NCBI GenBank assembly: GCA_040757775.1
Contig: JBFLWQ010000003.1
Coordinates: 124,001-188,000, forward strand
Direction: 5' to 3'
Source of the DNA: Thermodesulfobacteriota bacterium
GTDB lineage: Bacteria > Desulfobacterota > UBA8473
DNA length: 64,000 nt
Each line of letters starts with the position of its first letter. Position 1 is the stretch's first letter. The position numbers were made by a program, and so were the translations under genes. The notes under the pieces were generated by a model. That model searched no databases. It was not told the origin of the DNA and saw only the letters and a program-made list of their open reading frames with translations. Below, one piece after another: positions 59,005 to 63,211 of the stretch.

Positions 59005-59064
59005 AAGGGCAAGTCCTGAACGGGTTAAAAAGAAAGAGGTTGTTGTATTTGGAGGAGGTGTTCC

Positions 59065-61143
59065 ATGAAGAAATTATCCGTGTATGTTTTAATCCTTTTT
59101 ATCCTGCTCATCGCAATTCCCGGCTTTGCCTGGATTGGTGAGTTACATGATGCCGCAGAGCATGGCGATATTGAAAAAGCCCGTAGCCTGCTCAACAAAG
59201 GTGCGAATGTGAATGCGAGAGACAGCAAAGGCAATACCCCGCTCCATGTGGCTGCCAAGTATGGGAAAAAGGATATAGCACTTCTTCTGATTGAAAAAGG
59301 TGCTAATGTGAACGCAAAGGATAATGATGAATATGGTATAACCCCTCTTGATGACGCTGTGAATAATGGATACAAAGAGGTTGCCCAACTTCTTATTGAA
59401 AAGGGAGCTAATGTGAATGCAAAAAAGAGAAATACATGGACAGCTCTCCATGATGCTGCGTTTGGCGGGAAGAAAGACATTGTTTTCCTTCTTATAGAAA
59501 AGGGCGCAAATGTGAATGAGAAAACTGGTGTAGGCGACACACCTCTTCATATGGCAGCGTATAATGGTCACAAAGATGCCGCTCTGCTCCTCATTGAAAA
59601 GGGGGCATATCAAACAGAGAATAAGGATGGTTTTACCCAACTCCATGTCGCTGCAAGGCAAGGCAAAACTGACGTAGTCAGGCTTCTTATCGAAAAGGGT
59701 TGGCGTTTTGTGGCAAGGGACAATGCGGGCCGTACCCCTCTCCATTGGGCAGCGAGTGGGGGGCACAAAGAGGTCGCTCAACTCCTCATTGAAAAGGGAG
59801 CCGATGTGAACGCAAAAATGAACAATAACTGGACTCCTCTCCATGATGCAGCGTTTAATGGCTCCAAAGAAATTGTTCAACTGCTAATTGAAAAGGGAGC
59901 AGATGTAAACAGTAAAGATAATGAAGGCTTTACCCCTCTGCATAGAGCAACGAACTATATGCCTATCTTTTATAAAGGAGATGCAGAAGCTACTGTTCTC
60001 CTCCTCCTAAAAAATGGCGCGGATGTAAATGCAAAGACTAACGATGGTGATACCCCTCTCCATTTTGCTGTGCTAAGGAATGATAAAGTGAAAGCTACCC
60101 TCATTGAGAAGGGTGCAGATGTGAACGCAATGAACTTTAAAGGGCAGAACACTCCTCTCCATATTGTTTCTGGTATTGGCAATAAAGAGTTTGTCCTTTT
60201 CCTCATTGAAAGGGGCACTGACCCAGGCATAGCAAATAAAGATGGTAAAACACCTTTAAAGTTAGCTCAGGAAAAAGGCCACACAACCGTTGCCCTTATC
60301 CTTGAAGAGGCAGAGAAGGAATTTGTCAAAAAACTCCTCGCTAAAAAAACCGAACCTGAAAAAGCAGGTCAATATATTACTAAGCATGCTATACCTGATT
60401 TTAAATCTGCACCAAGACTGGATGACCTTGCAGTTATCATCGGCATTGAAAACTATCAGGGGCTGCCAAAATCCGACTATTCAAAGAGCGATGCGGGGGT
60501 TGTCAAAGAGTATTTCAAGGCACTTGGATTTCAGGAGAGGAATATTGAATTAATTACTGATGAAAAGGCAACAGGGAAAAGTATTGAAAAGGTAATAGAG
60601 GCATGGCTTCCCAATCGTGTTAAAAAAGACAGCAGGGTAATTGTTTATTATTCTGGTCACGGCGCACCAGAGCCAAAAACAGGAGATGCTTATATCGTTC
60701 CCTATGACGGAGACCCGAATTATCTTGAAGTTACAGGCTATCCATTAAAGAGGCTGTATGAAAAACTTGGTAAACTTGAGGCAGCGGAGGTCATCGTCCT
60801 TCTCGATTCATGCTTTTCAGGCGCAGGTGGGAGGAGTGTCCTTGCAAAAGGGGCAAGGCCGCTCGTGATGACGACAGAGGGTTTTGTTTTGCCGCAGAAT
60901 ATTGCAGTTTTATCTGCAACACAGGGAACACAGATTTCTTCATCATCTCCAGAAAAAGGGCATGGGATTTTCACATACTATTTCCTCAAGGCATTAAAAG
61001 ACGGCAAAAAGAGCCTCGCAGAGATTTATGAATACATAAAGCCACTTGTAGAAGACGAGGCAAAGCAGATCAATGTCCAGCAAAGCCCAAGTATAAGCCC
61101 TGATGCTGAGAAATTAAAGGGAAGGTTTGAATTGAGGAAGTGA
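59065..61143 (+). CDS. Secreted ankyrin-repeat caspase-like protease
   Basis: 692 residues. A signal peptide (1-23, ending GFA) suggests export. Twelve ankyrin repeats (about 30-430, consensus TPLHxAAxxGHKEVAxLLIEKGADVNA) are followed by a caspase-fold (peptidase C14) domain at about 450-692 with predicted His532 (YYSGHGAP) and Cys583 (LLDSCFSGAGG). GGAGGAGGTG gives strong initiation. The repeats probably bind a protein ligand and control the protease. A fusion of ankyrin array and caspase with a signal peptide is unusual. The domain is 81% identical to the one at 61829 by hand count. Confidence 0.9.
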   Translation: MKKLSVYVLILFILLIAIPGFAWIGELHDAAEHGDIEKARSLLNKGANVNARDSKGNTPLHVAAKYGKKDIALLLIEKGANVNAKDNDEYGITPLDDAVNNGYKEVAQLLIEKGANVNAKKRNTWTALHDAAFGGKKDIVFLLIEKGANVNEKTGVGDTPLHMAAYNGHKDAALLLIEKGAYQTENKDGFTQLHVAARQGKTDVVRLLIEKGWRFVARDNAGRTPLHWAASGGHKEVAQLLIEKGADVNAKMNNNWTPLHDAAFNGSKEIVQLLIEKGADVNSKDNEGFTPLHRATNYMPIFYKGDAEATVLLLLKNGADVNAKTNDGDTPLHFAVLRNDKVKATLIEKGADVNAMNFKGQNTPLHIVSGIGNKEFVLFLIERGTDPGIANKDGKTPLKLAQEKGHTTVALILEEAEKEFVKKLLAKKTEPEKAGQYITKHAIPDFKSAPRLDDLAVIIGIENYQGLPKSDYSKSDAGVVKEYFKALGFQERNIELITDEKATGKSIEKVIEAWLPNRVKKDSRVIVYYSGHGAPEPKTGDAYIVPYDGDPNYLEVTGYPLKRLYEKLGKLEAAEVIVLLDSCFSGAGGRSVLAKGARPLVMTTEGFVLPQNIAVLSATQGTQISSSSPEKGHGIFTYYFLKALKDGKKSLAEIYEYIKPLVEDEAKQINVQQSPSISPDAEKLKGRFELRK

Positions 61144-61153
61144 AGGAATAAAT

Positions 61154-61648
61154 ATGCTTGATTATCTTGGTATATTAAAAAAAATGAACGAAAAAGGAAT
61201 TCGATACATTGTTGTCGGAGGAATTGCGGTCAACCTGTACGGTATTCCAAGGATGACTTATGATATAGACCTGATACTTGACCTTGAGGACAAGAACTTA
61301 GAAAAATTTTTGAAATTGCTAAAAAGCTGGGGATTCAAACCAAAAGTGCCTGTTGACATCATGGAATTTGCAGAGAAGAATAAGAGAGAAGAATGGATAA
61401 AAAAGAAGAATATGAAGGCATTCAATCTCGTAAACCCCGAATGGGCTATTTCAGAGATAGACATTGTGATTGATTCACCTGTAGATTATGAGAAGGCGCA
61501 TAAAAGAATCAATGAGATTAAGCTTCATGGTTTTACAATCCCTGTAGTCTCGATTGACGATCTCATAAAAATGAAGGAAAGGACAGGGAGACAGCAGGAT
61601 AAGGCTGACATAAGATATCTAAAGGAAATGAAAAATGAAAAGAAGTAA
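61154..61648 (+). CDS. Nucleotidyltransferase-fold protein (toxin-antitoxin-like)
   Basis: 164 residues. YIVVGGIAVNLYGIPRMTYDIDLIL shows the nucleotidyltransferase GG-x(n)-DxD pattern (quoted in part), with later Asp in SEIDIVIDSP and SIDDLIKMKERTGR. Similar to the nucleotidyltransferase parts of AbiEii- or MNT/HEPN-type systems. It starts 10 nt after the ankyrin-caspase stop and overlaps the 59-residue gene by 14 nt, so all may form one operon. Confidence 0.75.
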   Translation: MLDYLGILKKMNEKGIRYIVVGGIAVNLYGIPRMTYDIDLILDLEDKNLEKFLKLLKSWGFKPKVPVDIMEFAEKNKREEWIKKKNMKAFNLVNPEWAISEIDIVIDSPVDYEKAHKRINEIKLHGFTIPVVSIDDLIKMKERTGRQQDKADIRYLKEMKNEKK

Positions 61649-61814
61649 GGCCAGAGGCTTTGATTATTATCTGAGCAAAGAGGCAATTGAGAGATATAAG
61701 GAGAAGCCGCTTGAATTGAGGCTGAAGTGGCTTTATATGGGGAATCTTTTGCGGATGGGATACAGTAAAAAACTTATCAAACTACAAGATAAATTTAGAG
61801 AAGGGGAGAGGTAA
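61635..61814 (+). CDS. 59-residue partner protein of the nucleotidyltransferase
   Basis: Helical, basic protein (GFDYYLSKEAIERYKEKPLE, then RLKWLYMGNLLRMGYSKK). Its start overlaps the nucleotidyltransferase gene by 14 nt, the layout of a toxin-antitoxin-like pair. I do not recognise a named family; small proteins of this type, ending in FREGE-like motifs, are often seen next to nucleotidyltransferase genes in my memory. Confidence 0.6.
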   Translation: MKRSKARGFDYYLSKEAIERYKEKPLELRLKWLYMGNLLRMGYSKKLIKLQDKFREGER

Positions 61815-61828
61815 TAGGAGGTGAGATA

Positions 61829-63202
61829 ATGAAAACCTTTATCTATATATGTCTGATTATTCTTGTTTCCGGGTGCGTCATACCTGTGCCCAGTCAATCA
61901 ATTCAGCCAAAACGTCTTGACCCTTTGGCAGGCATTGATGTCGGACCTTCGCCTTACAGCGAGCTTACCGTTGGCGTCATAATGTCAGAAAACACAAAAA
62001 GCAGTACACGTTTTGGACAAGAAGGCAGACGCTGGGTTAATTTTGACCTTGAAAAAATCATTGAGAGATTTGACGACGCTTTCAGGCATAATTTCAAGAC
62101 CGTCGTAAAGCTTGAAAAGATGGATGACGCCAATGCCGTGCATGTAGACCTAATCGCTGTCTTTGACCGTTATACCGAGGTTTCGCGTAATATCAAGTTT
62201 GACGCCAGTGTAATATTTTTCACGCCTGATCGTAGCGAGATTGATACCGTCAAGGTAGAAGGTATATCTCATAGTTTTAGTGGACTCCCGGCAAAGTCCA
62301 TTGAAACAGCAGCATTTGACACTGCGCGCAGATTGGAAGCAGCGATTCGCTCTTCGGCAAAACTTAGAGAATTTGCAAAGTCGGCATCGCCTCATAAGGC
62401 TGCCGTCTATGCTTCAAAAAAAGGGCCTGTAATTATAGACATTCACCATATCCCTGATTTTCAATCAAGCCCGAGACCAGATGATTTGGCGGTTATTATC
62501 GGAATTGAGAATTATAAAAGCCTTCCAATGTCCGATCACTCAAAAAGCGATGCGGCTGTTATAAAGGATTATCTAAAGGCTTTTGGATTTCAGGAAAGAA
62601 ACATTGAATTCGCGGTTGATGCCGATGCGACAAAATCAGCCATTGAAAAGGCAATTGAGGCATGGTTGCCAAATCGCGTTAAAAAAGACAGCAAGGTTTT
62701 CGTTTATTATTCAGGCCACGGTGCGCCAGAGCCTAACACAAGCGATGCCTACATAGTGCCGCATGATGGAGACCCCAATTATCTTGAGGTTACAGGGTAT
62801 CCTTTGAAAAGGCTTTACGATAGATTGGGCAAATTGCAGGTGGCGGAGGTCATTGTCCTTCTTGATTCATGCTTCTCAGGAGCAGGCGGAAGGAGTGTAT
62901 TGGCGCAGGGCGCAAGGCCGTTGGTTATGATAACAGATATTAAAACAATTCCATCAAACATGGCTATACTTTCAGCAACGCAAGGCAGCCAGATAAGCAC
63001 ATCATCTCCTGAAAAAGGACATGGCATATTCACATACTACTTCCTCAAGGCGATAAAAGACGGAAAGAAGAACATAGCAGAGATTTACGAATACATAAAG
63101 CCACTGGTAGAAGACGAGGCAAAGCAGATCAATGTTCAGCAAAGCCCGGGTATAAGCCCGGATATTGAAAAATTAAAGGGAAGGTTCATTTTGAGAAAAT
63201 AG
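61829..63202 (+). CDS. Lipoprotein with caspase-like protease domain
   Basis: 457 residues. The lipobox LVSGC (Cys16) predicts a membrane-anchored lipoprotein. Residues 30-205 form an alpha/beta domain (LTVGVIMSE, VHVDLIAVFDRY) resembling small lipoprotein sensor domains, not ankyrin. The caspase-fold domain (about 210-457) has His297 (YYSGHGAP) and Cys348 (LLDSCFSGAGG), spaced 51 residues apart as in the ankyrin protein. GGAGGTGAGAT gives strong initiation. Confidence 0.88.
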   Translation: MKTFIYICLIILVSGCVIPVPSQSIQPKRLDPLAGIDVGPSPYSELTVGVIMSENTKSSTRFGQEGRRWVNFDLEKIIERFDDAFRHNFKTVVKLEKMDDANAVHVDLIAVFDRYTEVSRNIKFDASVIFFTPDRSEIDTVKVEGISHSFSGLPAKSIETAAFDTARRLEAAIRSSAKLREFAKSASPHKAAVYASKKGPVIIDIHHIPDFQSSPRPDDLAVIIGIENYKSLPMSDHSKSDAAVIKDYLKAFGFQERNIEFAVDADATKSAIEKAIEAWLPNRVKKDSKVFVYYSGHGAPEPNTSDAYIVPHDGDPNYLEVTGYPLKRLYDRLGKLQVAEVIVLLDSCFSGAGGRSVLAQGARPLVMITDIKTIPSNMAILSATQGSQISTSSPEKGHGIFTYYFLKAIKDGKKNIAEIYEYIKPLVEDEAKQINVQQSPGISPDIEKLKGRFILRK

Positions 63203-63211
63203 TAGTGTATT

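What the first reader, a model, noticed from the sequence alone, without database searches (positions are those of the whole stretch)
59065..63202. Envelope-directed pair of caspase-fold proteases in one operon
Two caspase-like proteases, one with twelve ankyrin repeats and a signal peptide, one a lipoprotein, flank a nucleotidyltransferase pair. Spacing is 10, -14 and 14 nt, so one transcript is likely. Caspase-like prokaryotic proteases in defence are normally cytoplasmic; both here carry export signals. The layout suggests a two-sensor periplasmic protease switch, possibly with the nucleotidyltransferase pair as a linked cytoplasmic module. This is my best candidate for an undescribed system.
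Basis: partly seen in the sequence, partly recalled or inferred. Interest (0 to 1): 0.85.

Follow-up and report, generated by a model that had tools for sequence, protein, structure and literature searches.

The report
Exported caspase-like pair with inserted toxin-like module
Two secreted relatives of the animal cell-death proteases (caspases) sit side by side in a bacterium with a small, probably toxin-antitoxin-like gene pair wedged between them; the proteases belong to a large local family of exported caspases, while the wedged pair is a widespread independent cassette, so the four genes look like an assembled cluster more than one dedicated machine.

Summary
Both caspase-fold proteins are intact with H/C dyads. 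Casp1 has 12 ankyrin repeats and a type-I-like signal peptide; casp2 has a lipobox. A nucleotidyltransferase (NT) and a 59-aa ORF lie between them; spacings 10, -14 and 14 nt are exact. (1) Exported caspases are usual in this lineage: 13 PF00656 proteins in the genome, and 36 of 41 sampled relatives have signal-like N-termini. (2) The four-gene block is an insertion: three congeners have the flanking genes directly adjacent. (3) Caspase-NT-small-caspase order recurs in the genus, at another site and with other caspase paralogues, and NT is broken in most copies. (4) Outside the genus about 21 NT-small pairs in several phyla have no caspase nearby. NT resembles the MenT1 tRNA-nucleotidyltransferase toxin by profile and fold, including its phospho-acceptor threonine; the small protein, unknown to Pfam/NCBIfam, is the candidate antitoxin. 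(5) The recurrent caspase neighbour is an exported DUF4384 protein (13 of 18 loci), absent here. Best reading: a recombining array unit of envelope orthocaspases carrying a hitch-hiking MenAT-like cassette. The 'two-sensor switch' is unproven and unlikely.

The parts
59030..63208 (+). Inserted block between an SDR gene (ends 59004) and a DUF401 gene (starts 63212)
   Evidence: G001, G002, G003 have SDR and DUF401 directly adjacent (42-91 nt unrelated intergenic); homology ends at 59029 and resumes at 63209. No flanking repeats, no transposase, GC like the window.
59065..61143 (+). casp1: signal peptide, 12 ankyrin repeats, C-terminal caspase domain (clade A)
   Evidence: PF00656 455-678, ankyrin Pfam hits; 12 units; tree; signal MKKLSVYVLILFILLIAIPGFA|W
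60658..60660 (+). casp1 catalytic His532
   Evidence: YYSGHG motif
60811..60813 (+). casp1 catalytic Cys583 (with Asp581 two residues before, expected basic-P1 pocket)
   Evidence: DSCFSG motif; specificity is inference from ortho/metacaspases
61154..61648 (+). NT: MenT1/AbiEii-like nucleotidyltransferase (GG22-23, T35, D37/D39, K141, D149/D152)
   Evidence: Pfam DUF6036/AbiEii; AF2 pLDDT 90.8; best PDB fold match MenT1 8an5 TM 0.65; profile hit 8an4 E=2.8e-6 with T35 aligned to MenT1 T39
61635..61814 (+). sml: 59-aa small basic protein, candidate antitoxin/partner of NT, 14-nt overlap with NT
   Evidence: Conserved family; about 21 NT-sml pairs outside the genus; no Pfam/NCBIfam/PHROG/PADLOC/PDB hit
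61829..63202 (+). casp2: lipoprotein (VSG|C), alpha/beta-looking N-terminal domain without Pfam hit, C-terminal caspase domain (clade A)
   Evidence: PF00656 220-443; lipobox; N-domain 36% identical over 127 aa to that of a caspase in G095
62717..62719 (+). casp2 catalytic His297
62870..62872 (+). casp2 catalytic Cys348

Best explanation
The locus is one unit of a lineage-specific, recombining family of exported caspase homologues (orthocaspases), with an unrelated two-gene cassette lodged between two paralogues. Caspases: each is exported by Sec; casp2 is lipidated, casp1 probably soluble periplasmic. Each has a swappable N-terminal recognition/anchor module (ankyrin stack or alpha/beta lipoprotein domain) on a conserved H/C protease domain, expected to cut after Arg/Lys. 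They would cut envelope proteins when the N-terminal module meets its ligand, independently of each other and of the cassette. Cassette: NT is a MenT1-like tRNA-modifying nucleotidyltransferase toxin candidate, and sml, translated by overlap with NT, its antitoxin candidate; it was carried in with the caspase array and works in the cytoplasm. Shown: genes, dyads, motifs, empty sites, recurrence in the genus, independence of the cassette elsewhere, purifying selection. Inferred: localisation, proteolytic activity, specificity, toxin/antitoxin roles, role of the N-terminal modules.
For: 13 PF00656 places in the genome. Close relatives are mostly lipobox proteins with variable N-termini; 36/41 sampled caspase ORFs have signal-like N-termini against 6/31 window genes. 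Empty sites in three congeners. In congeners the cassette is preceded by clade-B caspases, in the window by a clade-A one, and a remnant of a clade-B tail precedes a G003 NT copy. About 21 NT-sml pairs without caspase nearby, across several phyla. NT matches MenT1 by fold and profile. dN/dS 0.03-0.10 for caspase domains, 0.10 for NT. DUF4384 is the recurrent caspase neighbour.
Against: All five genus members keep the cassette beside caspases, and the own genome has a second caspase-NT'-caspase cluster with a 30%-identical NT, so a lineage-specific functional link is not excluded. Tight spacing suggests co-expression. Broken NT genes in congeners could be MAG assembly errors. Toxicity of NT and the antitoxin role of sml are untested; sml does not match MenA1 by sequence.
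Confidence: 0.62

Rival explanations
1. One reading: the four genes are one system, a two-sensor periplasmic protease switch with the nucleotidyltransferase pair as its linked cytoplasmic arm.
For: Four-gene order recurs in G001 and in part in G002-G004; conserved 8-11 nt caspase-to-NT junction in window, G001, G002, G003; purifying selection on all parts.
Against: No envelope-to-cytoplasm signalling part is encoded; NT broken in G001, G003, G004 copies; own C21 site has the B-A caspase pair without the cassette; cassette is caspase-free elsewhere.
Confidence: 0.1
2. MaOC1-like: the caspase cuts the neighbouring antitoxin and so frees the toxin.
For: Precedent: Microcystis MaOC1 orthocaspase next to a ParDE-like module cleaves its antitoxin (PMC7935541); sml is rich in Lys/Arg.
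Against: Both caspases carry export signals while NT and sml have none, so the partners are in different compartments unless export fails under stress.
Confidence: 0.07
3. The NT-sml pair acts as an addiction module that stabilises an otherwise unstable tandem array of near-identical caspase genes.
For: Caspase arrays show duplication and decay (G003:C204) and also hold PIN, HEPN and HepT-like genes.
Against: NT itself decays in arrays that keep intact caspases; own C21 and C11 caspases persist without it.
Confidence: 0.15
4. The caspases work with exported DUF4384/FlgT_N-like proteins encoded elsewhere in the genome; the window pair is a satellite copy using that partner in trans.
For: 13 of 18 DUF4384 places in 16 genomes lie within 3 kb of a caspase, both copies of the own genome included; DUF4384 is a known accessory domain of cyanobacterial orthocaspases (PMC8283722).
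Against: No DUF4384 gene at the window locus; no interaction data.
Confidence: 0.25

Closest known systems
Prokaryotic caspase homologues / orthocaspases (PF00656, MEROPS C14B)
   Same: Caspase domain, H/C dyad, DSC motif, C-terminal domain behind variable accessory domains, several per genome, sometimes several per operon (PMC3501461)
   Different: Lipoprotein or Sec-exported forms dominate here; ankyrin or unassigned alpha/beta-looking N-domains; most described ones have no evidence of export (15% with a transmembrane helix in PMC3501461)
MenAT1 (MenT1 nucleotidyltransferase toxin with small MenA1 antitoxin)
   Same: NTase fold (TM 0.65), GG, T-x-D-x-D, K and D motifs, adjacent partner gene
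   Different: NT 22-23% identical; sml shows no sequence match to MenA1 in PDB; activity untested
MaOC1 orthocaspase with adjacent ParDE-like module (Microcystis)
   Same: Caspase gene next to a two-gene toxin-antitoxin-like module
   Different: Different module family; caspases here are exported; two caspases flank the module; no flanking 152-bp direct repeats
AbiE (type IV) and MNT-HEPN modules
   Same: Nucleotidyltransferase plus neighbour in a short operon
   Different: Partner is a 59-aa protein with no AbiEi or HEPN match

Membership tests
Orthocaspase / PF00656 caspase homologue | Match above the family cut-off over the whole domain | tested here: met
   74.9 bits each against cut-off 21.4
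Orthocaspase / PF00656 caspase homologue | Catalytic His and Cys | tested here: met
   YYSGHG and DSCFSG in both
Orthocaspase / PF00656 caspase homologue | Proteolysis after Arg/Lys | not testable with these tools
   Asp before Cys is compatible; no assay
MenT/AbiEii (DUF1814) nucleotidyltransferase toxins | NTase fold with motifs GG, T/S-x-D-x-D, K, D | tested here: met
   Fold match 8an5 TM 0.65; profile alignment to MenT1 with T39, D41, K and D aligned; AbiEii Pfam 28.8 bits above cut-off 22.5
MenT/AbiEii (DUF1814) nucleotidyltransferase toxins | Growth inhibition by tRNA modification | not testable with these tools
   needs expression
MenAT1 / AbiE antitoxins | Antitoxin homologous to MenA1, or to AbiEi with winged helix | tested here: not met
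   sml has no Pfam, NCBIfam or PADLOC hit and no relevant PDB hit
MNT-HEPN modules | HEPN partner | tested here: not met
   sml is 59 aa with no HEPN hit
MaOC1-type caspase plus TA module | Cytoplasmic caspase that cleaves the adjacent antitoxin | tested here: inconclusive
   Both caspases have export signals by rule; cleavage untested
Known anti-phage defence systems with caspase (PADLOC) | Assignment of the operon to a described system | tested here: not met
   Only generic caspase, ankyrin and ankyrin-bearing models hit; NT and sml none

The most novel reading that the evidence does not exclude
In this genus exported caspases and a MenT1-like toxin / new small antitoxin pair have become one envelope-damage response: periplasmic orthocaspases, armed by ankyrin or lipoprotein sensors, act on the envelope while the co-transcribed tRNA-modifying toxin arrests translation. 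Independently, NT-sml would be an undescribed, multi-phylum MenAT-like family that nests inside operons.
Probability: 0.1. Interest if true: 0.85.

Novelty: new variant of a known kind. Interest (0 to 1): 0.42.

Why it matters
Work on bacterial caspases concentrates on soluble cytoplasmic forms. Here is a genus in which they expanded as lipoproteins and secreted proteins with exchangeable ankyrin and other N-domains, with an exported DUF4384 protein as the usual neighbour: a tractable question about what caspases do in a bacterial envelope. The small NT-sml cassette is a candidate nucleotidyltransferase toxin-antitoxin family with an unannotated partner, present in several phyla and often lodged inside operons.

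Tried and rejected
Single-sequence AlphaFold of casp2: pLDDT 39.7, discarded; the N-domain fold of casp2 is therefore unresolved (it looks alpha/beta, but no Pfam hit even for relatives at E<1). Viral contigs: no relative of casp2 or NT. No PDB sequence relative for casp2. Mobile-element ends at the insertion: no flanking direct or inverted repeats. A promoter or terminator inside the block: not above shuffles. Hypothesis 'export is unusual for bacterial caspases in this organism' was rejected (the sample is biased to relatives of casp2 and the signal test is a simple rule). Hypothesis 'the cassette belongs to the caspases' was rejected as a general rule.

Full report
Observation. Casp1 (59065-61143) has 12 ankyrin units and a C-terminal PF00656 domain; casp2 (61829-63202) is a lipobox protein with the same C-terminal domain. 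H/C dyads are intact in both. The middle is one nucleotidyltransferase (NT, 61154-61648) and one 59-aa protein (sml, 61635-61814) without any family hit.

Export. Signal-like N-termini are present in both caspases, and in most of the family. In the genome 13 places match PF00656. Of 41 caspase-fold ORFs with complete N-termini from relatives, 23 have a lipobox and 13 a type-I-like signal by a simple rule, against 1 and 5 of 31 window genes; the 41 include a few partial or overlapping records of the same gene. The literature survey PMC3501461 reports a transmembrane helix in 15% of 671 prokaryotic metacaspases, many possibly signal peptides, and multi-metacaspase operons. The rule is crude and the sample was drawn by similarity to casp2.

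History of the locus. In three congeners (G001, G002, G003) the flanking SDR and DUF401 genes are adjacent; homology to the window stops at 59029 and resumes at 63209. All four genes thus lie in one inserted block of about 4.2 kb. No terminal repeats or transposase were seen. The congeners carry caspase-NT-sml-caspase at another site, in G001, G002 and G004 next to an MFS-like gene and a PIN gene (PIN). There the upstream caspase is of clade B (G001, G002, G003), while both window caspases are of clade A. One G003 NT copy is preceded by the remnant of a clade-B tail. The own genome's orthologous site (C21) has a clade B-clade A pair with no cassette. G003:C204 is an array of about six caspase pieces, several truncated. 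I infer recombination among caspase paralogues.

N-terminal modules. Casp2's N-domain is 36% identical over 127 residues to that of a caspase in G095 whose caspase domain is of the other clade. This indicates domain swapping. Its fold is unresolved.

The NT-sml cassette. It is not tied to caspases. Six loci in Nitrospirae, Elusimicrobia, Omnitrophota, Ignavibacteria and an unclassified bacterium, and 15 more among 297 genomes of the phylum, have NT followed by sml with a short overlap or gap and no caspase in the held flank (flanks are only about 1.5 kb for the latter). Many are wedged co-directionally inside unrelated operons. NT folds with pLDDT 90.8. Its best PDB matches are the MenT1 toxin (8an5, TM 0.65) and TM1012. 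A profile search gives MenT1 at E=2.8e-6 with T35 aligned to T39, the auto-phosphorylated residue of MenT1, and D37, K141 and the QDxxD motif aligned (PMC11375011). NT is under purifying selection against G002 (dN/dS 0.10) but frameshifted or deleted in G001, G003 and G004 copies; these are MAGs, so some breaks may be assembly errors.

Recurrent partner. In 16 genomes, 13 of 18 DUF4384 matches lie within 3 kb of a caspase (counted by eye). These are exported proteins, some with a weak FlgT_N-like part. DUF4384 is a known accessory domain of orthocaspases (PMC8283722). None is at the window locus.

Mechanism. I favour independent action: exported orthocaspases that cut envelope proteins when their N-terminal module binds its ligand, and a cytoplasmic MenAT-like pair that travels with the array. 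What argues for a closer link is genus-wide retention (5 of 5 genomes), the conserved 8-11 nt junction, and a second caspase-NT'-caspase cluster in the same genome with a 30%-identical NT (C13). What argues against is the compartment barrier, the decay of NT, and the free-living cassette. A MaOC1-like cleavage of the antitoxin (PMC7935541) is conceivable only if export fails.

Verdict. Real, well observed, less unusual than claimed. It is a new variant of known kinds: exported orthocaspases with shuffled N-domains, and a MenT1-like nucleotidyltransferase with an unannotated small partner.

Noticed in passing
L074:1276-1939, L075:2363-3020, L077:4077-4743, L078:779-1446, L099:992-1677: NT-sml pairs lodged co-directionally, often with overlapping start/stop codons, inside unrelated operons (pilin genes, sugar-nucleotide genes, upstream of a tRNA synthetase; names from sequence look). 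Looks like an operon-nesting cassette.
   Followed up: partly
L102:1510-1704: An sml homologue alone (no NT) overlaps both neighbours, apparently a KdsA-like and a KdsD-like gene (names from sequence look, not searched).
   Followed up: no
L058, L060, L062, L067, L071, L055, L056: Exported DUF4384 proteins sit next to caspase genes in 13 of 18 DUF4384 loci in 16 genomes: probable functional partner.
   Followed up: partly
L071:10162-15405 and L072 (own genome, contig 13): Cluster of six caspase genes, several large and WD40-like, on contig 13 with a DUF4384 gene and a second nucleotidyltransferase (30% identical to NT) between two caspases; G004 has a similar cluster.
   Followed up: partly
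L055 (G003 contig 204): Array of intact and truncated caspase genes with two NT remnants, as if the array expands and decays by recombination.
   Followed up: partly
L054:6018-6461: A HEPN domain joined to a fragment of a caspase domain in one ORF; PIN and HepT-like genes are common around these caspase arrays.
   Followed up: no
L059:3947-9714 and L060:2316-14551: Caspase lipoprotein genes inserted between or after what look like purine/pyrimidine genes (purL, purF, pyrE by sequence look) in other families of the phylum.
   Followed up: no
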